Origin: Clostridiales bacterium
Lineage (GTDB): Bacteria; Bacillota; Clostridia; Tissierellales; Sedimentibacteraceae
Direction: 5' to 3'
DNA: 15,434 nt
Assembly: GCA_003487955.1 (NCBI GenBank)
Contig: DNNJ01000364.1
Location: 1 to 15,434, forward strand
Shown here in pieces: positions 608 through 15,434 of the stretch. The number at the start of each line of letters is the position of its first letter. Within the stretch, counting starts at the first letter, position 1. Under the pieces are notes generated by a model. The model saw only the letters and a program-made list of their open reading frames with translations. It did not search any database and was not told the origin of the DNA. Made by a program: the position numbers and the translations under genes.

Positions 608-1555
608 ATGATAGAAATAGAAAAACCAAATATTACTTTAAATGAAAAGAATGAGAATAACACCTATGGTAAAATAGTGGTGGAGCCATTGGAAAGAGGC
701 TATGGGACAACAATCGGGAATTCATTAAGGAGAATACTACTTTCATCGTTACCGGGAGCAGCTGTTACTTCAATAAACATTCAAGGAGTATTGCATGAAT
801 TTTCTACAATACCCGGTGTTCGAGAAGATGTGACAGAAATAATCCTTAACATTAAAAACTTAGCTGCTAAAATGAATGTGCAGGGACCTGTGCAGCTTTT
901 AATAGATGCAAAAGGTCCGAAGACAGTTACGGCAGCAGACATAATTACGGGCGGAGATGTTGAAATAATAAATGAAGACCTGCATATTGCAACTCTTGAA
1001 GAAGGCTCTGAACTCATTATTGAAATGGAAATGGAGCAGGGAAGAGGGTATGTTATAGCAGAAAGAAACAAGAAGGACAGCCAGGCGATTGGAGTTATTC
1101 CTATCGATTCAATTTATACACCTGTAAAAAAGGTAAACTTTACGGTTGAAGATACAAGAGTGGGAAACAGAACGGATTTCGACAAGCTTACTCTTGAGGT
1201 TTGGACTAACGGCACGATAGAGCCTGAAGAAGCAGTTTCTTTAGGTGCCAAAATAATGAATGAACACCTCAACCTATTCATATCATTGACAGAGCATGTA
1301 AATGAAGTGGAAATCATGGTTGAAAAAGAAGAAGATGAAAAAGAAAAAGTTTTGGAAATGACAATAGAGGAGCTTGATTTATCAGTAAGATCTTACAATT
1401 GTCTGAAGAGAGCAGGAATAAATACTGTTGAGGAGCTTACTTACAAGACTGAAGAAGACATGATGAAAGTAAGAAATCTTGGAAAGAAATCTTTGGATGA
1501 AGTATCTAAGAAACTTGAAGAATTAGGATTATCTCTAAGGAAAAATGATAATTAG
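608..1555 (+). CDS. rpoA: DNA-directed RNA polymerase subunit alpha
   Basis: Alpha forms the dimer on which beta and beta' assemble and contacts UP elements and activators. The 315-residue product has the normal length. The N-terminal dimerisation domain shows the [20 protein letters not shown] block (residues about 32-51) and the internal [12 protein letters not shown] segment. An acidic, Lys-rich linker ([10 protein letters not shown]) leads to the C-terminal domain, with [22 protein letters not shown] and the helix-hairpin-helix [12 protein letters not shown]. An AAGGAGG site at 595-601 sets the ATG at 608. It lies between rpsD and rplQ, 18 nt before the latter, so it is co-transcribed with them. 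Nothing is unusual in the sequence. Confidence 0.98.
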
Positions 1556-1573
1556 CTTTAAAAGGAGGACTAA

Positions 1574-1918
1574 ATGGGTAGTCACAGAAAGCTTGGGGTT
1601 AAATCTGACCATAGAGTGGCAATGCTTCGAAATATGACTGCTGACCTTATTACTCATGGCAGAATAAGAACAACAGTTACAAGAGCTAAAGAGCTTAGAA
1701 GAGTTGCAGAAAGAACTATCACTCTCGGAAAAAGAGGAGACCTGCATGCAAGACGTCAGGCGTTAGCTTATTTATACGACAAAGATGCAGTATATAAGCT
1801 ATTCGAAGAAGTTGCTCCTAAATACAAGGATAGAAACGGTGGTTACACCAGAATTCTAAGAATTGGACCTAGAAGAGGCGATGGAGCAGAAATGGCGATA
1901 ATCGAATTAGTAGAATAG
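1574..1918 (+). CDS. rplQ: 50S ribosomal protein L17
   Basis: L17 is a large-subunit protein near the peptide exit tunnel. The 114-residue product opens with the family signature [20 protein letters not shown] and carries [20 protein letters not shown]. It ends with [20 protein letters not shown], the normal short bacterial form. A GGAGG site at 1563-1567 precedes the ATG by 6 nt. It is the last gene of the alpha operon here. A strong palindrome beginning 17 nt after its stop (1935-1980) probably ends transcription. In many Firmicutes the next gene is ecfA1, but here an agr locus of about 3.1 kb intervenes. Confidence 0.97.
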
Positions 1919-1934
1919 TCATTGATATGAATAT

Positions 1935-1980
1935 TAGGGACGATTCATTTTGTTCTTGCGAACAAAATGAACCGTCCCTA
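1935..1980. repeat. GGGACG-family palindrome, copy 1 (likely also terminator)
   Basis: This is an inverted repeat with two 21-nt arms (1935-1955 and 1960-1980) and the loop TTGC. Only one position in the arms fails to pair (A1943 with C1972). The arm begins TAGGGACG and runs into a TTCATTTTGTTC segment. It is followed by a short T-run (TAAATTTTTG), so it could work as an intrinsic terminator for the rplQ operon. A second copy with the same GGGACGGTTC core and the same loop position lies at 5004-5051. The motif resembles short GGGACGGTTC palindromes dispersed in many clostridial genomes and sometimes linked to REP-associated (RAYT/Y1) transposases. That link is recalled knowledge, and no transposase is visible here. 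Confidence 0.85.
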
Positions 1981-2006
1981 AATTTTTGTGAACATGTAAA
2001 TATACA

Positions 2007-2035
2007 TTGAAATAATTGTATTTTTATGGTAATAT
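2007..2035 (+). promoter_or_regulatory. Promoter of agrAC
   Basis: TTGAAA at 2007-2012 is followed after exactly 17 bp by TAATAT at 2030-2035. A TG at 2027-2028 also gives an extended -10. The predicted start is about 2042, giving a leader of about 40 nt before the ATG at 2083. The heptamer CATGTAA occurs at 1993-1999, upstream of the -35, and again at 2039-2045, around the predicted start. This could be a pair of regulator half-sites. Confidence 0.75.
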
Positions 2036-2055
2036 GAGCATGTAATTACATTTCA

Positions 2056-2070
2056 ATTACACAGTGTAAT
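2056..2070. promoter_or_regulatory. Perfect 15-bp palindrome in the agrA leader
   Basis: ATTACAC-A-GTGTAAT is a perfect inverted repeat with a 1-bp centre. It ends directly before the AAGGTG ribosome site at 2071-2076. The 10-bp self-complementary TGTAATTACA at 2041-2050 lies just upstream. The position, just downstream of the predicted start and against the ribosome site, suits a repressor operator. The binding protein is unknown. Confidence 0.45.
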
Positions 2071-2082
2071 AAGGTGAAAAAT

Positions 2083-2802
2083 ATGGTTAATATTGCCGTT
2101 TGTGATGATTCTGAAGAATATGTTGAAATAGTCAAGGAATTAATAAAGGTCATAATGGTGAAAAACAATACAGCCTGTAATATAGATACTTTCATTTCAG
2201 GTTTATCTTTGGTGCAAGCGTGTAAAAAGAAAACGTTTGATATCATATTTCTTGATATGGAAATGCCTGAAACGGACGGTATAAAAACAGGCCTTTTAAT
2301 CAGGGAGCTTAGTAATAAACCTATAATTTATTACTTAACATCACATAAAGAATATGCTTATGAATCATATCAGGTTAAAGCTAAGAATTATTTGCTGAAG
2401 CCGATTCAAAGTGATGTATTAGAGAAGGAATTGATGGAATGTATAAAAGAATTGAATATACCTATTGAATTTCTTGATGTAAAAGATATAACCGGTATAA
2501 TTCACCGCATTTCTCTAAACGATATAACACATATACTAAGGAAAAAAGATGATAGAAAGCTGCATATATATACTCTAAATAAAGAAGAAATAATAATAGT
2601 TCAAACTCTTAGAAGCATAGAAGACAGTCTATCTTCCATCAGTTTTTTTAAAAGATCCGGTAAATCCTGCCTTGTAAATTTGAATAATATACGTGCAATA
2701 CAAAAGAATATAATTTATTTTACAAATAATGAGACAGAAGAAGCCAGCAGACGATGCCTTTCAGATTTAGTTAATTTATTCAAAAAAATAAACAAGAGGT
2801 GA
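2083..2802 (+). CDS. agrA: AgrA-type LytTR response regulator
   Basis: This is the response regulator of a peptide quorum-sensing pair: the kinase phosphorylates it and it binds DNA through a LytTR domain. Counting from the ATG at 2083, the receiver domain (about 1-120) has the acidic pair D8-D9, the phospho-acceptor D58 in IIFLDMEMPETDG, T86 and the K106-P107 switch pair. The LytTR domain (about 135-235) contains ISLNDITHILRKKDDRKLHIYT, FFKRSGKSCLVNLNNI and a C-terminal IYFTNNE strand. At 239 residues it has the size of AgrA. A GTG at 2074 would add three residues, but it overlaps the AAGGTG ribosome site (2071-2076), which is spaced 6 nt from the ATG at 2083, so the later start is preferred. 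The gene ends 4 nt before agrC. Close linkage to agrC, agrD and agrB gives the Agr assignment. Confidence 0.9.
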   Translation: MVNIAVCDDSEEYVEIVKELIKVIMVKNNTACNIDTFISGLSLVQACKKKTFDIIFLDMEMPETDGIKTGLLIRELSNKPIIYYLTSHKEYAYESYQVKAKNYLLKPIQSDVLEKELMECIKELNIPIEFLDVKDITGIIHRISLNDITHILRKKDDRKLHIYTLNKEEIIIVQTLRSIEDSLSSISFFKRSGKSCLVNLNNIRAIQKNIIYFTNNETEEASRRCLSDLVNLFKKINKR

Positions 2803-2806
2803 TAGA

Positions 2807-4150
2807 GTGGATACATGGATTTTAATTGAGGCTTTTATTAATTTTCTTCAAAATTATATTATTTATAAGGTCACGGGACTGTTTTACGACAGAAGGTTAT
2901 CGTTTAAATTTAATGTTGAAATTGTAATAATTATAATGACCTTAATGCTTACCGGATTGAATTATTATTCCCAAATACATTCAAATCCTCTATTGTATTT
3001 TGCTTACTGTTTATTAATGCTCATAACAGCAGCAATAATATTTAAAGGCAATATTATTTCAAAGGCTGTAATAATATTTTCGCTTATAGTAGTTACGGGA
3101 ATCCTTGAATTGCTGGCAGCAGTCTTGATTACAATTTTAGGAGGTTTTGATTTAAACACTATTCAAGAGCAAAACAATGTCAGACTTGAAGTGATGATAA
3201 TATCCCAAACACTTTATGTATATTTTTATATGTTAATGAGAAAAAAGTTTGCTAAGGATAAAATAAGCTTTATTAATAATAAATACAATATCCTTGTAGG
3301 CACAATATTAATCTTGACTGTGATAATTATGATTATTCTTGCATGGATGTATGGAAATATTGATGTTACCAATGAAAGTATAGGTAAAACCTTATTGATA
3401 CTGACACTGTGCGTTTCATTATTGTCTATTATTTCTATAACCTTAATAAACCAGGTTCTAAAAGATATGGAAGAAAAACATAAAAACGAAATGGAGCTTC
3501 AGCAAATCAAATTAGAAAGAGCTTATTTAACGGATGTAAATGCTGCCTTGGAGGAAATCAGAATTTTGAGACATGATATGCGCGGAGAGTTAGCATTAAT
3601 ACACGGTTACAATGAATTAAACAAAAAGGATAAAATCAGAGCACATATTGAAAAGAGGCTTCATGAAATGGATGTACAGCTTATTCCTCAAATAGACAGC
3701 GAGAATATTATAACTTCATTCTTAAATTTCAAAATAAAGGAAGCAGAGTCCAAGAATATAAATGTTGACTTAACAAGCAAAATAAACGATGAAGAAATAT
3801 ACATCGATAAGGGAGATATTTGCAGGGTTATAAACAATATAATGAACAATGCAATTGAAGCATTACAAGATTGCGATACAAAAAGTATGAAGCTGTTTAT
3901 TGGAATAGCGGGAGGCTATTTAATTATAAAATCAGAAAATCCTTATAAGGGCAGCTTATTAACTGAAGGCAAAAAAATTATTACAATTAAAAAGGATAAA
4001 GCAAAACATGGCTACGGCTTAAAAAGTATTAACAATATAGCTGAAAGGTATAATGGTTTTATGAGTATATTGTACGAGGATAATAAATTTAAGATAGATG
4101 TAGAAATGTTAAACATTGGAGTGTATAAAAATGCAGCTGCTGAATGGTAA
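2807..4150 (+). CDS. agrC: AgrC-type sensor histidine kinase
   Basis: This is a membrane kinase expected to sense the cyclic peptide made from AgrD and to phosphorylate the upstream-encoded regulator. The 447-residue product starts at a GTG (2807), 7 nt after the GAGG of an AGAGGTGAT site. Residues about 1-215 hold six or so hydrophobic segments, for example IVIIIMTLMLTGL, AVIIFSLIVVTGILELLAAV and ILVGTILILTVIIMIILAWM. A charged coiled stretch (KDMEEKHKNEMELQQIKLER) leads to the dimerisation helix with phospho-acceptor H256 in ILRHDMRGELALIHGY. The GHKL ATPase domain shows the N box NNIMNNAIEAL (343-353) and the G box HGYGLKSI (401-408). This AgrC/HPK10 layout, a polytopic sensor with an HDxxxxL-type helix and an Spo0B-like ATPase, fits the neighbours. 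It is co-transcribed with agrA. Confidence 0.88.
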   Translation: MDTWILIEAFINFLQNYIIYKVTGLFYDRRLSFKFNVEIVIIIMTLMLTGLNYYSQIHSNPLLYFAYCLLMLITAAIIFKGNIISKAVIIFSLIVVTGILELLAAVLITILGGFDLNTIQEQNNVRLEVMIISQTLYVYFYMLMRKKFAKDKISFINNKYNILVGTILILTVIIMIILAWMYGNIDVTNESIGKTLLILTLCVSLLSIISITLINQVLKDMEEKHKNEMELQQIKLERAYLTDVNAALEEIRILRHDMRGELALIHGYNELNKKDKIRAHIEKRLHEMDVQLIPQIDSENIITSFLNFKIKEAESKNINVDLTSKINDEEIYIDKGDICRVINNIMNNAIEALQDCDTKSMKLFIGIAGGYLIIKSENPYKGSLLTEGKKIITIKKDKAKHGYGLKSINNIAERYNGFMSILYEDNKFKIDVEMLNIGVYKNAAAEW

Positions 4151-4174
4151 AATACAACACAGCACTCCGTTTTT
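4118..4174 (+). terminator. Possible weak terminator at the end of agrC
   Basis: GGAGTG at 4118-4123 can pair with CACTCC at 4163-4168, followed by G and five T (4170-4174). The loop is long and contains the self-complementary GCAGCTGC. ATAAAAA (4125-4131) could instead pair with TTTTTAT (4170-4176), which would hide the T-run. The loop is large and the call is weak. It would partly separate agrAC from agrDB. Confidence 0.3.
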
Positions 4175-4200
4175 ATGGCAATTATGTTCGAGAAATTTAC

Positions 4201-4233
4201 CGGTTGAGCAATAAAAACAACCGAATAAGCAAT
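4201..4233. promoter_or_regulatory. Candidate AgrA operator upstream of agrDB
   Basis: CGGTTG (4201-4206) and CAACCG (4218-4223) form a perfect inverted repeat with an 11-bp gap. AGCAAT occurs at 4207-4212 and again at 4228-4233, 21 bp apart, which is two helical turns. The block ends 14 bp upstream of the -35 box at 4248. LytTR regulators usually bind paired 9-bp sites with a GTT core just upstream of a weak -35, so the position fits AgrA. The half-sites are not a clean match to the usual LytTR consensus, and their arrangement is inverted rather than direct. Confidence 0.45.
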
Positions 4234-4247
4234 TTATGGAAAAAATG

Positions 4248-4276
4248 TTGAAGTTTGTCACTTTTTATCTTATTAT
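4248..4276 (+). promoter_or_regulatory. Promoter of agrDB
   Basis: TTGAAG at 4248-4253 is followed after 17 bp by TATTAT at 4271-4276, placing transcription start near 4283, about 20 nt before the agrD ATG. The -35 matches consensus at four of six positions, as expected for an activated promoter. It gives agrDB a transcription unit separate from agrAC, so pheromone production could be autoinduced independently of the sensing genes. Confidence 0.65.
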
Positions 4277-4303
4277 CTTATTAATAGGAAAGGGGGATTT
4301 AAA

Positions 4304-4438
4304 ATGAAGAAACATTTATCATTATTATCATGTATTTCAATGCTTTTGGTAACAACAGCTCAAGCATCTATGGGAATAACATGCATACTATTTATTAATC
4401 AACCAAAAGTGCCTCAATGCCTGCTGGAAAATGATTAA
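4304..4438 (+). CDS. agrD: AgrD-type cyclic autoinducing peptide precursor
   Basis: This 44-codon gene encodes the quorum-sensing pheromone precursor. A GGGGG ribosome site (4292-4296) lies 7 nt before the ATG at 4304, and TAA is at 4436-4438. Residues 1-23 form a basic then hydrophobic N-terminal helix (MKKHLSLLSCISMLLVTTAQ). The signal region is GITCILFI, and the C-terminal recognition tail is NQPKVPQCLLEND with P34 and P37. It aligns with the clostridial AgrD pattern, for example the A-C-L-W-F-T-H-Q-P-E-E-P core of the Clostridium perfringens protein. By that alignment C27 forms a thiolactone with the carboxyl of I31, giving a five-residue CILFI ring with a tail of unknown length. The ring boundaries are inferred. 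C10 in the leader and C39 in the tail are additional cysteines. The stop codon overlaps the start of agrB by 8 nt. Confidence 0.9.
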   Translation: MKKHLSLLSCISMLLVTTAQASMGITCILFINQPKVPQCLLEND

Positions 4439-4991
4439 TAAATTCTCAGCAAAATTGTCTGAAGAATTGAGCCTAAGCCTCAATTCTTCAGACAATGAAA
4501 AAGAAATATACGCATACAGCATTGAAGTACTGATATCTTTATTAATAAATCTCATTATCCTTTCCATAACGGCATATTTTTTTAAAAAACCGGCTGAGCT
4601 CATTGTATTCATTATATTTTTTTCAATTCTCAGAAGTTATGCCGGAGGGTATCATGCCAAGACTCATATAGAGTGTATATCCTTATCATTGTTCTTATTT
4701 GTAATATCAGCCTTAAGCAGTACTTATTTAATAGAGTTCGGAAAAGTAATATTATCTTTTGGAATTTTGTTTTCAATAATAATGGTATTTGTCTTTGCTC
4801 CATCTGAATCTGAAAATAAACCTTTAAGCAAAAAAAGGTACAAGAAGTATAGAACGCTCAGCAGGATAATAGTAATAGCATTATCTGTGACAGCAATTTG
4901 TTTGTACTTCACTAAAGAAACTACCGGGCATTTATATATAACTGCAGTAGCGGCAATGTCTTTTGAGTCACTAAGCCTATTGAAACATTAA
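4431..4991 (+). CDS. agrB: AgrB-type accessory gene regulator protease
   Basis: AgrB is the membrane cysteine endopeptidase that removes the AgrD C-terminal tail and helps form the thiolactone. The 186-residue product contains the signature RSYAGGYHAKTHIEC with H75 and C82, a spacing of seven that equals H77/C84 of the Staphylococcus aureus enzyme. An amphipathic N-terminal stretch (about 1-30) precedes hydrophobic segments around 33-50 (LISLLINLIILSITAYFF), 54-66, 83-100, 104-123, 139-155 and 160-175. The basic KPLSKKRYKKYR segment (about 128-139) is also typical. The ATG at 4431 lies within the last codons of agrD (overlap ATGATTAA) and has only a weak GGA upstream, so translation is probably coupled to agrD. 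Codons 8-22 fall in a perfect 18-bp inverted repeat (4454-4496). Confidence 0.93.
   Translation: MINKFSAKLSEELSLSLNSSDNEKEIYAYSIEVLISLLINLIILSITAYFFKKPAELIVFIIFFSILRSYAGGYHAKTHIECISLSLFLFVISALSSTYLIEFGKVILSFGILFSIIMVFVFAPSESENKPLSKKRYKKYRTLSRIIVIALSVTAICLYFTKETTGHLYITAVAAMSFESLSLLKH
4454..4496. repeat. Perfect 18-bp inverted repeat inside agrB
   Basis: The arm ATTGTCTGAAGAATTGAG (4454-4471) has its exact reverse complement at 4479-4496, separated by 7 nt. In mRNA it would form a very stable stem starting 15 nt after the agrD stop codon. It encodes the N-terminal Leu/Ser/Glu/Asn-rich part of AgrB without breaking the frame. No T-run follows, so it is not a standard terminator. It could slow ribosomes, protect the agrD message or mark a processing site. 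Confidence 0.9.
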
Positions 4992-5003
4992 ATATTGAGG
5001 ATA

Positions 5004-5051
5004 TTTGGGACGGTTCTTTTTGTTCTTGAGAATAAAAATTACCGTCCCAAA
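5004..5051. repeat. GGGACG-family palindrome, copy 2
   Basis: Arms at 5004-5025 and 5030-5051 are separated by TTGA. The stem pairs at 20 of 22 positions if one G-T wobble is allowed; the mismatches are T5015 and C5016 against T5040 and T5039. The core TTTGGGACGGT and the following TTTTTGTTCTTG match copy 1 at 1935-1980. It begins 12 nt after agrB and may serve as its terminator. The two copies together bracket the agr cassette. Confidence 0.82.
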
Positions 5052-5072
5052 ATTTATGCTCATCTTTTAAAA

Positions 5073-5165
5073 CCCGAGATCCTTCGTTATACTCAGGATG
5101 ACAACCCGTTGGGTGCGAACAGTAACTTGCTATTCACCGTCAGTATATAGCGTAAAATTTACTGT
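5073..5165. repeat. Repeat mosaic upstream of ecfA1
   Basis: GAGATCCTTCG, a short spacer, then CTCAGGATGACAA (about 5075-5104) matches a widespread intergenic repeat type recalled from clostridial and other genomes. It is followed by the small hairpin ACCC-GTT-GGGT (about 5104-5114). Next is a nested imperfect palindrome: ACAGTAA (5119-5125) pairs with TTACTGT (5159-5165), and inside it GCTAT (5129-5133) pairs with ATAGC (5147-5151). No coding capacity is seen. With the GGGACG palindrome next door, at least three repeat types lie in 160 bp. Confidence 0.5.
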
Positions 5166-5193
5166 TGTAAAATAATGTGAATGATGATATTAT
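5165..5193 (+). promoter_or_regulatory. Promoter of the ecfA1-ecfA2-ecfT-truA operon
   Basis: TTGTAA at 5165-5170 is followed after 17 bp by TATTAT at 5188-5193, with a TG at 5185-5186 giving an extended -10. The predicted start is near 5200, about 38 nt before the ecfA1 ATG. A private promoter is expected here because the palindrome and the agr locus separate this operon from the alpha operon. Confidence 0.65.
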
Positions 5194-5237
5194 TCTTATG
5201 CGGCTTTAACCGTTAAAATTTAAATAACAGGTGTAGA

Positions 5238-6062
5238 ATGAACGAATACATAATTAAAATTGATAATGTGAAATATAAATATGAAAAAAACTCCGATTAT
5301 GCTGTTAACGGAATTTCACTTAATATTAAAAACGGAGAGTTTACTGCAATTATCGGTCACAATGGCTCAGGAAAATCCACTTTAGCAAAACTAATCAATT
5401 CAATTTTACTTCCCACAGGAGGAAAGATTTTCGTTAAAGGAATGGATACCTCCGACGACTCTAAGCTTTGGGACATAAGACAGACTGCAGGCATGGTGTT
5501 TCAAAATCCGGATAATCAGTTAGTGGCAACCATTGTTGAGGAAGACATTGCTTTCGGTCCTGAAAATTTAGGTGTTGAACCGGCTGAAATAAGAAAAAGG
5601 GTTGATGATGCTTTAAATACCGTAGGTATGTATGAATTCAGAAAAAGACCGCCCCATTTATTATCCGGCGGACAAAAACAAAGAATAGCAATAGCAGGCA
5701 TATTGGCTTTAAATTCCGACTGCATAATTTTGGATGAGCCTACTGCAATGTTAGACCCTTCCGGCAGGAGAGAAGTTATGGAAACATTAAAAAAGTTGAA
5801 TGCTGAAGGGAAGACAATACTTCTTATCACACACTATATGGATGAAGCTGTTCAAGCAGATAGAGTAATAATCATGGATAAGGGGAATATTAAATTGGAC
5901 GGGACACCTAAGGAAGTATTCAGAAATATTGATGAAATTAAAAAATACGGTTTGGATGTTCCACAGGTAACGGAGCTGTCACAGGAACTTATTAAGGAAG
6001 GAATGAAACTACCTCCTGATATAATAAATGTAAAGGAATTGGTGGACATATTATGTCAATAA
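5238..6062 (+). CDS. ecfA1: ECF transporter ATP-binding subunit EcfA1
   Basis: This is the first of the paired ATPases that power energy-coupling-factor importers of vitamins and metal ions. The 274-residue ABC protein has Walker [10 protein letters not shown] (40-48), the Q-loop VFQNPDNQ with Q89, the signature LSGGQ (142-146), Walker B IILDEP with D166-E167, and the switch histidine in [10 protein letters not shown]. An AGGTG site at 5229-5233 lies 4 nt before the ATG, a short spacing. The gene overlaps ecfA2 by 10 nt. With ecfT it forms a group II ECF module shared by several S-components encoded elsewhere, as none is in the window. The older name cbiO implies cobalt transport, for which there is no evidence here. 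Confidence 0.95.
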
Positions 6063-9482: not shown

Positions 9483-9512
9483 AAGGAGTCACGGAAATGT
9501 GGCTCCTTTTTC
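9483..9512. terminator. Bidirectional terminator between rpsI and the regulator gene
   Basis: AAGGAGTCAC (9483-9492) pairs with GTGGCTCCTT (9499-9508; one G-U) around the loop GGAAAT. A T-run follows on the plus strand (to 9511), and a weaker GATTTTAATTT follows on the minus strand. The stem overlaps the last six codons and the stop codon of the minus-strand regulator gene, so the hairpin sequence is also coding. Confidence 0.8.
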
Positions 9513-12371
9513 TAAATACTTTACTGCCTCTTCATAAATTTCCCGGTATTTGATACTTTTCACAACAGCCCAAAGCGCTTCGAAATCTGACAAGTACTCT
9601 CCTTTATATAGAGATATAATTTTTGTTGCTTGTTCCTTGGTATTATGAAGTTTAAATTCTTCATATATTCTTTCAAAAAGATCACTATCGCAAACAATAT
9701 CATCCCGACAGATAAAATAGCGGTTTTCACGATAGGAGACTGCTTCCTCCAAGCCGGCGCATTTAAGATCATTTTTTAAATGTCTCAAATTTACCGCAAT
9801 TAGGTTTTTAATATTTTTAGATTCCGACTCCCACCAAATAGCGTTATATATTTGTTCTTTAGTAGCCCCTTGACCACCTGCATCAAGCAAGAAAGCCAAA
9901 AGCTCCCGTTCCTTTTTCGTTCTGAATTTTATTATATTTTGCCTTTTTTTATCCCGGTAAACAGTAAAAGCCCCCAATGTTTCAACATATGTTTTCTTTG
10001 GTTTGTATCCGGCAAATTCCATCATCTGTTTTGTAATTTCAGGTTCTATCCCATTGTCATAGGCAAATTCAAGTACCGGGTCATAAGTCTTCCGAAGTTT
10101 GAAATATTCATAAAGGCCATTGTCAGAGCAAAGCTTAAGATAATGCCTTGTAAGGCTTATAGAATTTTCATAGTCATTTGTATCTATTGCCGCTTTTGCA
10201 AGAATTCCGTACGCTAAAGACGAATGAAGCAGCATGCCTGAGTTCTCTCCTGCTGCTATGCACATTTGTGCACATTTAACTGCACTTTGAAAATCGGATA
10301 TGGCAGAAAAATAACCCATAAGCCTGGCCAATACTACATTTTTCAAATAAGCTCCTGCATTATCTAAGTTTTCAAAGATTTCCTGCACCTGATTTTTATT
10401 ATGTGTATCAGAAAAAAAGAGACCATAAGTAAGCCGCTGTAGTTTTGCCCACTGCATCTGAAAATATGTTTTACGGTAAAGGGGCGCATACTCGTCTGCT
10501 AAAGTAAAATACTTTATGCATGTTCCAAAGGAAGCATCAAAACCATTCATTTTATCAATGAAGCTGTTCTGGTAATAAATTTCAGCAGCAAGCAGGTAAC
10601 CTGCCCACATTTCTTCATAATTACCCGTATTCCTTAGCCGCTTCAGCTCAGCTGAGAGTATGGACAAGGAACGGCTTCTTTCTCCCATCATCTGATAAGC
10701 TTTAGCCACATAAATGCCGGTACTGTGCATACCCAAATATTTCAGTTCATCCTCAGGAATTTCAAGAGACTTTTCGTAATAGTAGATACAATCCTTCATC
10801 CTGCCTGCAAAAAAATGTATTGTGCAAAGGTATCTTTCAAACCAATTCATGACCTTAATTTTACCGGACTTGGCACAGAGCTCTATCATATTACGAGCAA
10901 GTGCATAAGCTTCATTAATCCGGGAATTCCAGCACAGGTTGTACAATTTTTCGATAACTACTGCATATGATAGTTCCACATCCTGATTGTTAAGTTCGGC
11001 AATAAGTTTATCAAGCAGCATGTTTGATTCCTCAAATGAAACGAAATTGCGCAATACCCTTGCCTTATGTATCATAGCTTCAAAATAAAGCTCCATATTA
11101 TCTTTGCTGATTTGCGGCAGCGCCGTATCAATATATTCATTAGCCTTTACAAAATTTCCAATAACGGAATTAAATGCCCCTATTGCAACAAGAATTTCGG
11201 AACTTAGTTGAATTGCCGTATTGTCTAATGATTGGAACCATATACGAAGCTCATTGAATTTGCAGCCCTTTAAATAATCCCTGTAGCATACGAGGATTAT
11301 CTTTTCTAAAAGTTCGTAATCCTTTGAATTCATGGCGTATCTACCTGCCCTTGAATACTGTTTTTGATCAAAATAATATCGGGCTGCTTTTTGCCTTAAC
11401 AATGACCTTTGGACATTATCCATCCTTTCCAGCAGACTGTTTTTAAAAAGCGTGTGGTAGCGGTATAATCCGTTACTCGTTTTAATGGTAAATATATTTC
11501 TGTTTACAAGGCTTTCTAACATAAGTTTCGTATTTTTTTTATTCAACACATCATCTAACATATGTGCATCCAATTCGTCAAAGCAGGCAGAACTTTTAAG
11601 GAAATCTACCATGTCGCTGTTCAAATTTGCTATACATTCACGGAAAAGGTAGGCATACAAGGTTTCATGGCTGTAAGAAGTAATGTCGCCAATGGATATA
11701 CCGTTCTCCAACAATACCTTGAATGAGCCTATGGCTAAGGGCCACCCCTCTGTTGTATCATAAATGGCTGGATCGTCAAAACCCAAGATACCAGCAATCT
11801 CTTCTCTCGTAAATGCTAACTCCTTTTGGGTCAGTTCGGTAATTTCGCCCTTTATTTTATAAGATAACAAATCCTCACAAGGTGCTTCCCTGCTGCCCAA
11901 ACAAACTTTAATGTTTTTCGGAATATACTTGATAAGAGAGACGATAAATTTTTTGACTTGTTCTTCTTCAATGGTATGCAGATCATCCATAATGACAACA
12001 AAATCTTCAGGGATATTTTCAATACTGCAGATAAATGCACCAGCAAGCATGGAGATGAAATTGCTTTTTTCGTAAAATGGCAAGTATTCCGTTGTGGAGA
12101 AGTCAAATTCCGGAAAAGTATACTTTACGGCCTCACACAATGTGTCTATGAATGTAAAAACATCGTTTTCTCCGTCTAAAGAGAGCCAGACAGCGTTTCC
12201 GGAACAGTTTGCAATTTGTGACAGAAAGGTAGTCTTGCCGTGACCGGCGCCGGCATGGATGTATATAAGCTTTTTAGGGCTGTTAATTATGGTATCTATT
12301 AGAATTTCTCTAAGGATTTCTCCATCGAAGGACTTAGGAACAGTAAGTCTTACACTTGGTACATTAAGCAT
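9489..12371 (-). CDS. MalT-like STAND ATPase regulator with SARP-type C-terminus
   Basis: This is a large signal-transducing transcription factor of 960 residues from the preferred start. Walker A AGAGHGKTT (40-48) and Walker B VVIMDDLH (125-132), with LGSREAP as likely sensor 1, define a STAND/MalT-type NTPase. The following several hundred residues are helical and TPR-like (KAARYYFDQKQYSRAGRYAM and similar), a common arm for sensing ligands or partner proteins. The C-terminus (from about 795) is not a LuxR helix-turn-helix. It is an OmpR/SARP-type winged helix (FRTKKERELLAFLLDAGG, then NLIAVNLRHLKNDL) plus a short BTAD-like segment (ISLYKGEYLSDFEALWA). An upstream ATG at 12411-12413 would add 14 residues but lacks a ribosome site. 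A GAGGT (12379-12383) lies 7 nt from the ATG at 12369-12371. The gene is divergent from the surface-protein gene, which it may control. The inducer is unknown. Confidence 0.85.
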   Translation of the reverse strand: MLNVPSVRLTVPKSFDGEILREILIDTIINSPKKLIYIHAGAGHGKTTFLSQIANCSGNAVWLSLDGENDVFTFIDTLCEAVKYTFPEFDFSTTEYLPFYEKSNFISMLAGAFICSIENIPEDFVVIMDDLHTIEEEQVKKFIVSLIKYIPKNIKVCLGSREAPCEDLLSYKIKGEITELTQKELAFTREEIAGILGFDDPAIYDTTEGWPLAIGSFKVLLENGISIGDITSYSHETLYAYLFRECIANLNSDMVDFLKSSACFDELDAHMLDDVLNKKNTKLMLESLVNRNIFTIKTSNGLYRYHTLFKNSLLERMDNVQRSLLRQKAARYYFDQKQYSRAGRYAMNSKDYELLEKIILVCYRDYLKGCKFNELRIWFQSLDNTAIQLSSEILVAIGAFNSVIGNFVKANEYIDTALPQISKDNMELYFEAMIHKARVLRNFVSFEESNMLLDKLIAELNNQDVELSYAVVIEKLYNLCWNSRINEAYALARNMIELCAKSGKIKVMNWFERYLCTIHFFAGRMKDCIYYYEKSLEIPEDELKYLGMHSTGIYVAKAYQMMGERSRSLSILSAELKRLRNTGNYEEMWAGYLLAAEIYYQNSFIDKMNGFDASFGTCIKYFTLADEYAPLYRKTYFQMQWAKLQRLTYGLFFSDTHNKNQVQEIFENLDNAGAYLKNVVLARLMGYFSAISDFQSAVKCAQMCIAAGENSGMLLHSSLAYGILAKAAIDTNDYENSISLTRHYLKLCSDNGLYEYFKLRKTYDPVLEFAYDNGIEPEITKQMMEFAGYKPKKTYVETLGAFTVYRDKKRQNIIKFRTKKERELLAFLLDAGGQGATKEQIYNAIWWESESKNIKNLIAVNLRHLKNDLKCAGLEEAVSYRENRYFICRDDIVCDSDLFERIYEEFKLHNTKEQATKIISLYKGEYLSDFEALWAVVKSIKYREIYEEAVKYLEKGATFP

Positions 12372-12440
12372 GCGCATTACCTCATAACTGGTATAATTAT
12401 TAAATCTTAACATAAAGGTGGGAAAATTTAAAGCAATTTG

Positions 12441-12879: not shown

Positions 12880-12917
12880 GTTATATAATTGTACAGGAAT
12901 TATAACATGATTATTAT
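12880..12917 (+). promoter_or_regulatory. Second promoter of the surface-protein gene, with palindrome
   Basis: TTGTAC at 12889-12894 and TATTAT at 12912-12917 are 17 bp apart, placing a start near 12924. That start is only about 19 nt before the ATG and just before the GGGAGG ribosome site at 12927-12932. GTTATATAATT (12880-12890) and AATTATAAC (12899-12907) form an imperfect palindrome across the -35 box, a possible operator. Confidence 0.5.
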
Positions 12918-12942
12918 AACTATATTGGGAGGTAGCAAGCAA

Positions 12943-15434
12943 ATGTTAAAAAAGATTCATAAGCAGATTATTATTGTATTGATTATATCAATGTTCTTGC
13001 AATTGCTCGTTGGCGTGACACCGGTAATGGCAGAAGATTTAAGTGACCAGAATACTGAGCTGATTGAAGAGGTTGGTGAAGATATTGTAGAAGAATCAGA
13101 GTTTGTACAGCCATTGGAAGTAAAATTGTCCCCCGGTACAACCGCAGGAGCTATTTCGGCAACTATTGTTGAGGGTATAGAGCCTATGGCTGTTGGACAA
13201 TACTCTTACATAGATGAAAATGGAGAGACAAAGTACATAGGAGCCGATACGGTTATAAAAGTCACCCCGGATACCAACACTCTTGATGGCGGCTGGTATA
13301 TCGTGGAAGGCACAATCAATAGAACCGGCACAATTACTGTAAGTGGTCATGTCCATCTGATTCTTGGAAATAATTCATCCCTTACGGTTAGTGGAAATGA
13401 TAATAATGCGGGCATCCATGTCTCCGGAGGTAACAGTATAACCATCTACTCTCAATCAAGGGGAGAAGAGATGGGGTCCCTCCATGCCACCGGTGCTGTC
13501 GGTGCTGCCGGCATAGGTGGTGGCTATGATGGTGATGGAGGAACAATTAATATTAACGGTGGTACGGTTACAGCAACAGGTGGTGAATCCGCTGCAGGCA
13601 TTGGAGGAGGCTACAATTGCGTTGGAGTAAATATAGAAATTAATAATGGAACAGTTACAGCAACAGGCGGCAGACTTGGAGCCGGCATAGGCGGCGGGGC
13701 ACTTAGCTCCGTCATAGAGATTACAATCAACGGCGGAATTATTAATGCAACGGGAAATGTGGGCGGAGCAGGAATAGGAGGAGGCTATGAAGGTGGTGGA
13801 GGTACTATAATAATCAATGGCGGTACAATAAATGCAATTGGATTATCCGGCGGTGCAGGTATTGGCAGTGGAGTTTATAGTGAAAATGGCAGTATAATTC
13901 ACATTGACGGAAATGCAAATATTGCGGCAGTATCTTTAGGTGGTGAAAATAAGCCTGCAATTGATGCACAAAGTGACAGCAGTGGTATTATCATAAACGC
14001 TACGCTTCAAACTCCAATTAGCAATGATTATGCAGTATACCTAAAATCAGACTCTTCCATACTAAAACTACCAGCGGGATTCAAGGGCTTTGCATTCAGT
14101 CCCACATATGATCCGGATAATTTTACATACAATTCGAAAATATCCGTTTATTCAGATGAGAGTTGTACCATCCCCAAAGGCAGGATTATAACTGATTTTT
14201 TAGGAGGTATAGGAATAAAAATTCCTTCTGTTTCGTTGGAACTTGAACAAAAGGCTACTTTGGTTAAATATAATATTCCTATTACAGATGGCAATGTTAA
14301 TATCAGTGGAGTTAACGAAAGCTATATCTATACAGGTAACATAATCACTCCGGAGCCCATAGTAGAATATGAGAATGTTATACTTGAAAAAGACAGGGAC
14401 TATGCTGTCCAGTATCGTGATAATATCTGGGTGGGCACTGCTGAGATAGTTATTACTTTTATTGGAATATACTCAGGCTCTGTTACGAGAAACTTTAAAA
14501 TTCTTAGTAAGACCTATAATCTTGGACCGGAAGGAAACGAAGCTGCTGTAACAGGCACTGTTGATTCCAATGGAACTCTTACAATCACAGGCAGTGGACC
14601 GATGGGAGATTATGAAACGGAATCTCCCCTAAAAAACTATCCAAATATAAAATCTGTAGTAATAAATAACGGAATGACAACAATTGGCTCATATGTGTTT
14701 TTCTACCTTTACAATTTGGAATCAGTAACAATCCCGAGCTCAGTCACCAATATTAAAAACGATGCATTTAGATACTGTACTAAGCTAAATTCTGTTACAT
14801 TTGAAGATGGTTCAAAACTCCAAATCATTGGAGATGATGCTTTTGATACTTGTTCTGCCCTAAAATCCATAACAATACCTTCTTCGGTCGAAAGCATTGG
14901 CAATAGTGCATTTTATGGCTGCTCTTCCCTGGCTGCCATTGTAAATTATTGCAGTAATAATCAGATTATAGGAAATAATGCATTTGTCACCGGTACTGCC
15001 GGTACAAAAATAGCAACTGCCTATAATTCAAATTTGAACTTTATCCATGCTGCCCAGTCGGCAGGGTATACAATAGAATATTTTCCATTCTATACCGTGA
15101 GCTTTGATGCTAACGGCGGTGAAACGCCTTCACCGGTCAGCAAGTTTGTTAATGATTCCGGCACTTATGGAGATTTAGCAGTAGTTATAAGGACAGGATA
15201 TACATTTAATGGCTGGTTTACAGCATTAACCGGAGGTACAAAGGTTGAAACAACCACAACCATCAATAACTCAGATCATACCCTGTATGCCCGGTGGACA
15301 ATAAATCAGTATAACATCAGCTTTGACAGTGCGGGAGGTACTCCTGTAGAATCCATAACTCAAGATTACGGTACAGCAGTAGCAGTGCCTGTTAATCCAA
15401 CCAAGGAAGGCCACACATTCAAAGGATGGCAACC
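12943..15434 (+). CDS. Secreted modular surface protein with LRR_5 and InlB B-type repeats (3' truncated)
   Basis: The frame is open from the ATG at 12943 to the window edge: 830 complete codons, no stop. GGGAGG at 12927-12932 precedes the start. Residues 1-30 are a signal peptide (basic MLKKIHK, hydrophobic core, cleavage after TPVMA). An acidic linker leads to a beta-strand-rich part. Residues about 187-315 hold five AGIGGG-type motifs at G190, G219, G248, G277 and G306, an exact 29-residue period with INGGTxxAxG strands between, typical of a beta-helix. About 447-521 is a Lachnospiraceae-type beta-sandwich module (YIYTGNIITPEP, then YAVQYRDNIWVGTAEIVIT). About 560-680 are BspA-like LRR_5 repeats (LESVTIPSSVTNIKNDAF). 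From 718 are InlB B-type repeats (YTVSFDANGG to LYARW, then a second to the edge). Probably an adhesin or envelope protein. The wall anchor would lie beyond the window. Confidence 0.9.
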   Translation, partial: MLKKIHKQIIIVLIISMFLQLLVGVTPVMAEDLSDQNTELIEEVGEDIVEESEFVQPLEVKLSPGTTAGAISATIVEGIEPMAVGQYSYIDENGETKYIGADTVIKVTPDTNTLDGGWYIVEGTINRTGTITVSGHVHLILGNNSSLTVSGNDNNAGIHVSGGNSITIYSQSRGEEMGSLHATGAVGAAGIGGGYDGDGGTININGGTVTATGGESAAGIGGGYNCVGVNIEINNGTVTATGGRLGAGIGGGALSSVIEITINGGIINATGNVGGAGIGGGYEGGGGTIIINGGTINAIGLSGGAGIGSGVYSENGSIIHIDGNANIAAVSLGGENKPAIDAQSDSSGIIINATLQTPISNDYAVYLKSDSSILKLPAGFKGFAFSPTYDPDNFTYNSKISVYSDESCTIPKGRIITDFLGGIGIKIPSVSLELEQKATLVKYNIPITDGNVNISGVNESYIYTGNIITPEPIVEYENVILEKDRDYAVQYRDNIWVGTAEIVITFIGIYSGSVTRNFKILSKTYNLGPEGNEAAVTGTVDSNGTLTITGSGPMGDYETESPLKNYPNIKSVVINNGMTTIGSYVFFYLYNLESVTIPSSVTNIKNDAFRYCTKLNSVTFEDGSKLQIIGDDAFDTCSALKSITIPSSVESIGNSAFYGCSSLAAIVNYCSNNQIIGNNAFVTGTAGTKIATAYNSNLNFIHAAQSAGYTIEYFPFYTVSFDANGGETPSPVSKFVNDSGTYGDLAVVIRTGYTFNGWFTALTGGTKVETTTTINNSDHTLYARWTINQYNISFDSAGGTPVESITQDYGTAVAVPVNPTKEGHTFKGWQ

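What the first reader, a model, noticed from the sequence alone, without database searches (positions are those of the whole stretch)
1919..5237. A complete agr quorum-sensing cassette inside the rplQ-ecfA1 junction, bordered by matching palindromes
Seen: agrA-agrC-agrD-agrB lies between rplQ and ecfA1, and one copy of the same GGGACG-core palindrome lies at each border (1935-1980 and 5004-5051). Known: in many Firmicutes rplQ is followed directly by ecfA1 (cbiO). Inferred: the cassette was gained at this highly expressed locus, and the palindromes are either the footprint of its movement or insulators that keep it apart from ribosomal-protein transcription.
Basis: partly seen in the sequence, partly recalled or inferred. 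Interest (0 to 1): 0.75.

Follow-up and report, generated by a model that had tools for sequence, protein, structure and literature searches.

The report
Conserved agr locus beside mobile palindromes
A bacterial peptide-signalling gene set sits at a spot its genus has used for a long time, and the matching palindromes at its edges look like common mobile repeats that settle behind genes, not marks of how the gene set moved in.

Summary
In detail: a complete agrA-agrC-agrD-agrB set lies between rplQ and ecfA1, with a GGGACG palindrome 15 nt after the rplQ stop and 12 nt after the agrB stop. The host is probably Sedimentibacter. The set was gained within this genus: present in 14 of 23 genus genomes with a readable junction, in none of 36 order relatives. 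The palindromes are not its footprint. Of 11 agr loci readable at both borders, two carry both palindromes, one a variant on the right only, eight neither. In the species tree agr is older than the left palindrome, and three agr-less relatives nested among carriers keep it. The repeat is scattered through the genome, mostly just behind genes, and matches terminal inverted repeats of Y1 (TIRYT/RAYT-type) transposase genes in relatives. The two "borders" are simply the 3' ends of rplQ and agrB. Mechanism (inferred): agrAC from its own promoter, agrDB from a promoter behind a conserved 21-nt AgrA-type direct repeat, giving a self-inducing switch. One unexpected feature: a hairpin inside agrB (4454-4496), more stable than synonymous-codon controls in 12 of 13 genus genomes; it may set the AgrD:AgrB ratio.

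The parts
1574..1918 (+). rplQ, ribosomal protein L17 (left neighbour)
   Evidence: PF01196 E 2e-43; TIGR00059 over cut-off
1934..1981 (.). Left palindrome (TIR/REP-like repeat), 15 nt after the rplQ stop
   Evidence: same family elsewhere in genome
2007..2035 (+). Candidate promoter of agrAC (TTGAAA-17-TAATAT, TG before the second hexamer)
   Evidence: consensus match (total number of such matches not above shuffles); ATTGAA shared by 8 of 12 aligned rows upstream of agrA
2083..2802 (+). agrA, response regulator with LytTR DNA-binding domain
   Evidence: PF00072, PF04397
2807..4150 (+). agrC, sensor histidine kinase
   Evidence: PF14501 GHKL E 6e-18; NF046015 AgrC E 7e-7, below its cut-off
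4199..4231 (+). AgrA-type box: direct repeats starting at 4199 and 4220 (21 nt apart)
   Evidence: aligned and largely conserved in 13 of 13 loci incl. the window, most diverged in G007; pattern search: 14 places in 13 of 25 genomes, 12 of them upstream of agrD, one upstream of agrC (G007), one elsewhere (G010:C59), reversed control 0
4248..4276 (+). Candidate agrDB promoter (TTGAAG-17-TATTAT); proximal repeat centred near -59 by my count
   Evidence: consensus match; conserved region
4304..4438 (+). agrD, autoinducer precursor; predicted core TCILFI before NQPKVPQCLL
   Evidence: TIGR04223 over cut-off; alignment
4431..4991 (+). agrB, AgrD-processing membrane peptidase
   Evidence: PF04647 E 4e-37
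4454..4496 (+). Conserved hairpin inside agrB (about codons 8-22), 15 nt after the agrD stop
   Evidence: (I9)
5004..5051 (.). Right palindrome (same family), 12 nt after the agrB stop
5165..5193 (+). ecfA1 promoter candidate (TTGTAA-17-TATTAT), with or without agr upstream
   Evidence: TTGTAAA in 17 of 19 aligned genus rows, not in the two family outgroups
5238..6062 (+). ecfA1, ECF transporter ATPase (right neighbour)
   Evidence: TIGR04520 over cut-off

Best explanation
A complete, self-inducing agr system gained by an ancestor within this Sedimentibacter-like genus and since inherited mostly vertically at the rplQ-ecfA1 junction, with several losses. agrAC is transcribed from its own promoter; AgrA-phosphate acts at a box upstream of agrDB, closing the feedback loop (inferred from footprint). 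ecfA1 keeps its own promoter, so the cassette sits between two independent transcription units. The two palindromes are separate, later arrivals: copies of a dispersed repeat that matches terminal inverted repeats of Y1 (TIRYT/RAYT-type) transposase genes. They settle mostly just behind stop codons, here behind rplQ and behind agrB. They therefore mark gene ends, not cassette ends. Shown: positions, phylogeny, dispersal, 3'-end placement, TIR match in relatives. Inferred: mobilisation by Y1 transposase, AgrA binding, promoters, any terminator use.
For: agr at the junction in 14 of 23 readable genus genomes, 0 of 36 order relatives. The agr tree largely follows the species tree. DNA tree: G004, with agr and no left palindrome, branches outside the seven-genome clade (98/99) in which a left palindrome occurs in 6 of 7 (decayed in G012); agr-less G023, G015 and G002 nest in that clade, and no AgrB match at all was found in these three genomes. 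Palindrome family scattered: 33 half-sites in own genome vs 5 reversed controls; in 18 of 25 genus genomes, up to 132 copies. Placement behind genes: 10 of 10 chosen intergenic own-genome sites with both neighbours known adjoin a stop, none divergent; 16 of 18 such clusters in G002. TIR link: GGGACGG 48 times in 88 kb around 30 Y1 loci vs 4 in 68 kb around 21 of the 30 rplQ loci; inverted copies on both sides in 7 of 21 Y1 genes checked; genomes with a long-type Y1 gene: 14 of 14 have the repeat, without: 4 of 11 (Fisher p 0.0007, grouping made, relatedness ignored). AgrA-type box aligned in 13 of 13.
Against: The only Y1 gene found in the window's own genome (L038) has no GGGACGG flank, though the assembly is about 80% complete. 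The TIR core GGGGACGG differs by one base from the published TIRYT consensus GGGGWSAS. Nine of 21 Y1 loci lack the repeat within 600 nt. The background of spacers in the G002 stretches is also mostly non-divergent (19 of 23), so the 3' preference rests mainly on the short distance to stops (14 of 19 within 20 nt); 2 of 15 own-genome sites lie inside open frames. Promoter-like matches over 1500-5300 are not more than shuffles give (27 vs 21.4, sd 4.3). The minimum of 5 changes for agr does not itself choose gain over loss, and G007's agr (order C-D-B-A) groups differently in the two trees.
Confidence: 0.85

Rival explanations
1. The palindromes are the ends of a mobile unit that carried agr into the rplQ-ecfA1 junction.
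For: Both borders carry them in the window and in G005; empty sites with one palindrome exist (G023, G015); in G024 a Y1 gene with GGGGACAG palindromes sits in this very junction together with a deacetylase-like gene.
Against: Eight of 11 agr loci readable at both borders have neither repeat and one has only a variant on the right; agr is older than the left palindrome; the repeats sit 12-15 nt after stops, much as elsewhere in the genome.
Confidence: 0.05
2. The palindromes have been adopted as terminators or insulators that separate rplQ, agr and ecfA1 transcription.
For: They are the strong hairpins in these two spacers; relatives have other hairpins, several followed by T runs, at the same two places; the left one is followed by ATTTTTG, and in G005 the left one ends in a run of eight T.
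Against: The terminator scan found no site at either palindrome; the right one has no proper T run; many copies elsewhere show no sign of such a role.
Confidence: 0.3
3. Recombination or slippage between the two flanking palindromes is how agr was lost in G015/G002 and G023, leaving one palindrome.
For: G005, sister to G015 and G002, has palindromes at both borders while those two have one at the rplQ end and no agr.
Against: No junction was seen with a hybrid palindrome or a deletion scar; simple deletion explains the same data; G002's contig ends before ecfA1.
Confidence: 0.15

Closest known systems
agr quorum-sensing systems (S. aureus agrBDCA; C. difficile agr2, agrACDB, PMC3754575, passages read)
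   Same: AgrB, AgrD, AgrC and AgrA all present; order A-C-D-B is that of the C. difficile locus; the direct repeat near -59 resembles the S. aureus placement (proximal repeats near -60, PMC4227749, passages read).
   Different: Genus-specific place at rplQ-ecfA1; the AgrA-type box lies between agrC and agrD, so agrAC and agrDB look like two units, whereas the C. difficile locus is suggested to be one transcript; agrB contains a conserved hairpin.
TIR repeats of TIRYT transposases (Di Nocera 2013, PMC3733652, abstract, passages and section 16 read; subclass 2.1 / RAYT group 1 in PMC6006769, passages read)
   Same: Inverted repeats with a GGGGAC.G core on both sides of Y1 transposase genes in relatives; dispersed single and dimeric copies.
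   Different: Core GGGGACGG departs from GGGGWSAS by one base; found here in a Sedimentibacter-like genus; the window's own genome shows no cognate gene.
REP/REPIN elements with RAYTs (PMC2817692, passages read; PMC3116915, search listing only)
   Same: Short palindromes, dispersed, mostly behind genes, tied to a Y1 transposase.
   Different: No GTAG/GTGG tag at the hairpin foot.
CGTC REPs (PMC3733652)
   Same: Contains CGTC near the foot.
   Different: CGTC is inside the paired stem here; arms are 22-23 nt, not 8-9 bp.

Membership tests
agr quorum-sensing system | AgrB peptidase | tested here: met
   PF04647 E 4e-37
agr quorum-sensing system | AgrD cyclic-peptide precursor | tested here: met
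   TIGR04223 25.3 bits over cut-off 19
agr quorum-sensing system | AgrC histidine kinase and AgrA LytTR regulator | tested here: met
   PF14501; PF00072 plus PF04397; NF046015 AgrC (Staphylococcus) model itself far below cut-off
agr quorum-sensing system | Promoter activated by AgrA (feedback) | tested here: inconclusive
   21-nt direct repeat upstream of agrD in 13 of 13 aligned loci; binding not testable
agr quorum-sensing system | Secreted peptide senses density | not testable with these tools
   needs bench work
TIR repeats of TIRYT (Y1) transposases | Inverted copies flank a Y1 transposase gene | tested here: met
   in relatives, 7 of 21 Y1 loci; the one Y1 gene found in the window's genome is not flanked
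TIR repeats of TIRYT (Y1) transposases | Consensus GGGGWSAS | tested here: not met
   GGGGACGG has one mismatch, and the published consensus covers only some TIRs; G024 junction copy GGGGACAG fits
TIR repeats of TIRYT (Y1) transposases | Transposase with C-terminal HTH/DnaA-like domain | tested here: inconclusive
   4 proteins scanned: below-cut-off Bac_DnaA_C E 0.008 in L038, HTH_19 E 0.03 in L207, none in L205 and L224
GTAG REP / REPIN | GTAG or GTGG tag at hairpin foot | tested here: not met
   window 1934-1981 and 5004-5051 begin TTAGGGACG and TTTGGGACG
CGTC REP | unpaired CGTC tag, 8-9 bp stem | tested here: not met
   CGTC paired, arms 22-23 nt; definition
intrinsic terminator | GC-rich stem followed by T run | tested here: inconclusive
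   scan calls none at either palindrome; left hairpin followed by ATTTTTG

The most novel reading that the evidence does not exclude
In this genus the agrB message carries, 15 nt behind the agrD stop, a hairpin kept by selection on codon choice. agrD and agrB overlap and should be translated together, so the hairpin would act as a valve (cleavage site, ribosome brake or end-cap for agrD mRNA) that makes more AgrD peptide than AgrB enzyme: a post-transcriptional gain control of quorum sensing built into a coding sequence.
Probability: 0.3. Interest if true: 0.55.

Novelty: new member of a known kind. Interest (0 to 1): 0.33.

Why it matters
It replaces an attractive mobility story with a simpler one: repeats that settle behind genes will look like cassette borders whenever genes are co-oriented. 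It documents a ribosomal-operon junction that holds different cargo across one genus, and a footprinted agr feedback promoter in little-studied anaerobes. The hairpin in agrB is the one part that could open new work on how producers balance signal precursor and processing enzyme.

Tried and rejected
Insertion footprint: rejected on phylogeny, dispersal and placement. GTAG or CGTC REP membership: rejected on the tag. Known RNA family: no Rfam match over the gathering score in the window; with E up to 1 over 4150-5240 only three hits at E 0.6-0.9, far below their gathering scores. Palindrome letters in print: a search for the 10-mer and its complement gave 41 papers; the 20 listed, seen as titles and abstract starts only, looked unrelated. 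The word TIRYT occurs in 2 held papers, both used here. Sedimentibacter with agr and quorum sensing: 6 papers listed, none read. The agrB hairpin in print: two searches listed 4 and 1 papers whose titles pointed to no such element; not read. A wider AgrA regulon: the stringent box pattern gave only one place away from agr in 25 genomes, G010:C59. Same hairpin in distant agrB genes: not seen in 15 tested (z above -2 at every start tried) nor in the G024 paralogue. Covariation in the agrB hairpin is modest because most pairs barely vary: score reached in 8 of 500 shuffles, cells paired in 24 of 500, pairs changed on both sides in 228 of 500; the +1 slide also shows 2 such pairs.
Full report
What is there. 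The window holds rpoA, rplQ, agrA-agrC-agrD-agrB, ecfA1-ecfA2-ecfT-like, truA-like, rplM-like and rpsI-like genes (names other than rplQ, agr and ecfA1 are by eye). Domain searches confirm the four agr genes and both neighbours. The palindromes are real and fold strongly. Among the few named AgrB relatives two are called Sedimentibacter and others Tissierellia, Bacillota or Tissierella, so the genus is an inference.

The junction in relatives. A search for L17 found rplQ in 21 of 25 genus genomes including the window's. Of the 20 relatives, agrA (or agrC in G007) follows rplQ in 11 (G001, G005, G007, G008, G010, G011, G012, G014, G017, G019, G021; in G012 the contig ends within agrA), ecfA1 follows directly in 4 (G013, G015, G016, G023), and 5 hold something else: radical-SAM-like gene rows in G003 and G018, a Y1 transposase and a deacetylase-like gene in G024, permease-like and other genes in G009 (no ecfA1 in the 10 kb read), an SLH-like gene before the contig end in G002 (names by eye except Y1). 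G004 and G006 have agr before ecfA1 on contigs that end at or before rplQ. That makes 14 of 23 with the window; G020 and G022 could not be read. Outside the genus, 32 of 36 order relatives have ecfA1 68-433 nt behind rplQ, three (G029, G046, G059) have no ecfA1 in about 4 kb, one contig (G058) ends, and none shows agr there (seven of the 36 were read over 1.5 kb only).

Age of the parts. The agr tree recovers the two main species clades, with G007 and its near twin L089 the exception. In the DNA tree of rpoA, rplQ, ecfA1 and ecfA2 G004 lies outside {G000, G001, G012, G023, G005, G002, G015} (98/99; with G004 96/96), (G005,(G002,G015)) has 100/99 and G023 with these 81/86; six rows fill under half of the columns. 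A repeat-type hairpin in the spacer behind rplQ occurs in G000, G005, G002, G015 and G023 and, decayed, in G012 and in distant G009; G001 has another hairpin there. So agr came first, the left palindrome later, and agr was then lost in G023 and in the G002/G015 line, which keep the palindrome. Both palindromes around agr occur in 2 of 11 loci readable at both borders (G000, G005); G004 has a variant on the right only; 8 have none by a scan for GGGACG or CGTCCC and by eye. Strongly decayed copies could be missed.

What the palindromes are. In the window's genome the half-site is found 18 times with up to 3 mismatches (control 0), and a shorter one 33 times (control 5). Exact copies of a 14-mer occur in 18 of 25 genus genomes, 132 in G002 (reversed control: one hit in all). 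They cluster around Y1 transposase genes: 48 GGGACGG in 88 kb (13 of 30 loci; some loci overlap, so a few copies are counted twice), against 4 in 68 kb around rplQ (3 of 21 loci; the window's own and 8 more distant ones left out) and 5 in 96 kb around agrB (2 of 29 loci), with reversed controls 2, 0 and 4. Of the 30 Y1 loci 21 held a gene that passed my motif filter; in 7 an inverted pair brackets it, in 5 the repeat lies on one side or in other orientations, in 9 it is absent. In L205 the repeat reads GGGACGGTTCTTTTTGTT, as in the right palindrome of the window. This fits the TIR repeats of TIRYT transposases in PMC3733652 (abstract, passages and section 16 read) and subclass 2.1 in PMC6006769 (passages read). 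I examined 15 own-genome sites outside the window, leaving out five weak one-mismatch hits (on C101, C228, C247, C303, C314), C375 and a second site on C358: 10 are intergenic with both neighbours known, all beside at least one stop and none divergent; 3 are at contig edges; 2 inside open frames. In 20 fetched stretches of G002, 23 clusters: 18 with both neighbours, 16 beside a stop, 2 divergent; the nearest stop is within 20 nt in 14 of 19 with a stop on either side. The window's two copies, 15 and 12 nt behind stops, are typical.

How the locus likely works. Upstream of agrD all 13 aligned loci show two CCG-like elements 21 nt apart, most diverged in G007. The pattern with up to 3 mismatches occurs at 14 places in 13 of 25 genomes: 12 upstream of agrD, one upstream of agrC in G007, one in G010 near a short open frame away from agr; reversed control 0. 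The 21-nt spacing resembles the AgrA sites of S. aureus (9-bp repeats 12 bp apart, recalled); PMC4227749 (passages) places the promoter-proximal repeats near -60, and here the centre falls near -59 from a start that I placed 7 nt after the -10 match. No such box was found before agrA. Hence agrAC is probably basal and agrDB autoinduced. ecfA1 has a promoter-like element, TTGTAAA being shared by 17 of 19 aligned genus rows whether or not agr is present. Single promoter matches carry little weight alone, as their number does not exceed shuffles. PMC3754575 (passages) reports the same gene order in C. difficile and suggests one transcript there.

The hairpin in agrB. One search listed an inverted repeat at 4454-4496. 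Folding of the first codons of agrB gives -25 to -33 kcal/mol in 12 of 13 genomes and -14.8 in G011. Against 1000 synonymous recodings with the locus's codon usage, z is -3.8 to -6.1 in those 12 (0-2 of 1000 as stable), -1.0 in G011 and +0.8 in the G024 paralogue; windows further along agrB in the two genomes scanned (G000, G008) stay above -2, while the start of agrA in G000 gives -2.4. Codon 12 and the serine codon 19 change together: GGA with TCC in 7, GAA or AGA with TCT in 6 of 13 (Fisher p 0.0006, relatedness ignored). Formal pair counts are supportive but modest. The agrD stop lies 5 or 8 nt behind the first base of agrB in all 13, so the two genes overlap. I take this as a real, genus-limited RNA element of unknown effect; a valve on AgrB relative to AgrD is my proposal.

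Verdict. The finding is an accurate description with a mostly ordinary explanation.

Noticed in passing
window 4454-4496: Hairpin inside agrB, more stable than synonymous recodings in 12 of 13 genus genomes.
   Followed up: yes
window 5076-5103: A near-copy (one base shorter than the pattern) of a second dispersed repeat, TCATCCTGAG...GAAGGATCT, found in 16 of 25 genus genomes and 96 times in G018; copies or variants also lie behind rplQ in G002, G012 and G015.
   Followed up: partly
L087 (G024 junction, minus strand): A Y1 transposase gene with GGGGACAG palindromes, followed by a deacetylase-like gene, sits between rplQ and ecfA1.
   Followed up: partly
L078 and L077 (G003, G018): Rows of radical-SAM-like genes with a permease-like and an acetyltransferase-like gene fill the same junction (names by eye).
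   Followed up: no
L084 (G017): AgrD has Ser in place of the ring Cys (TSIFIY), which would give a lactone peptide (chemistry recalled).
   Followed up: no
L083 (G007) and L089: agr order is C-D-B-A with an AgrA-type box before agrC as well; a G011:C280 copy has the same AgrA, AgrC and AgrB as far as the tree shows, possibly a stray contig.
   Followed up: partly
L269 (G010:C59): A second AgrA-type box with a promoter-like stretch near a short open frame: a possible target outside agr.
   Followed up: no
window 9489-12413 (-) and 12889-15432 (+): A 974-aa protein with a nucleotide-binding (STAND-like) match and a C-terminal regulator domain match, both below cut-off, and the start of a surface-type protein with BspA leucine-rich and Listeria-Bacteroides repeats.
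   Followed up: no
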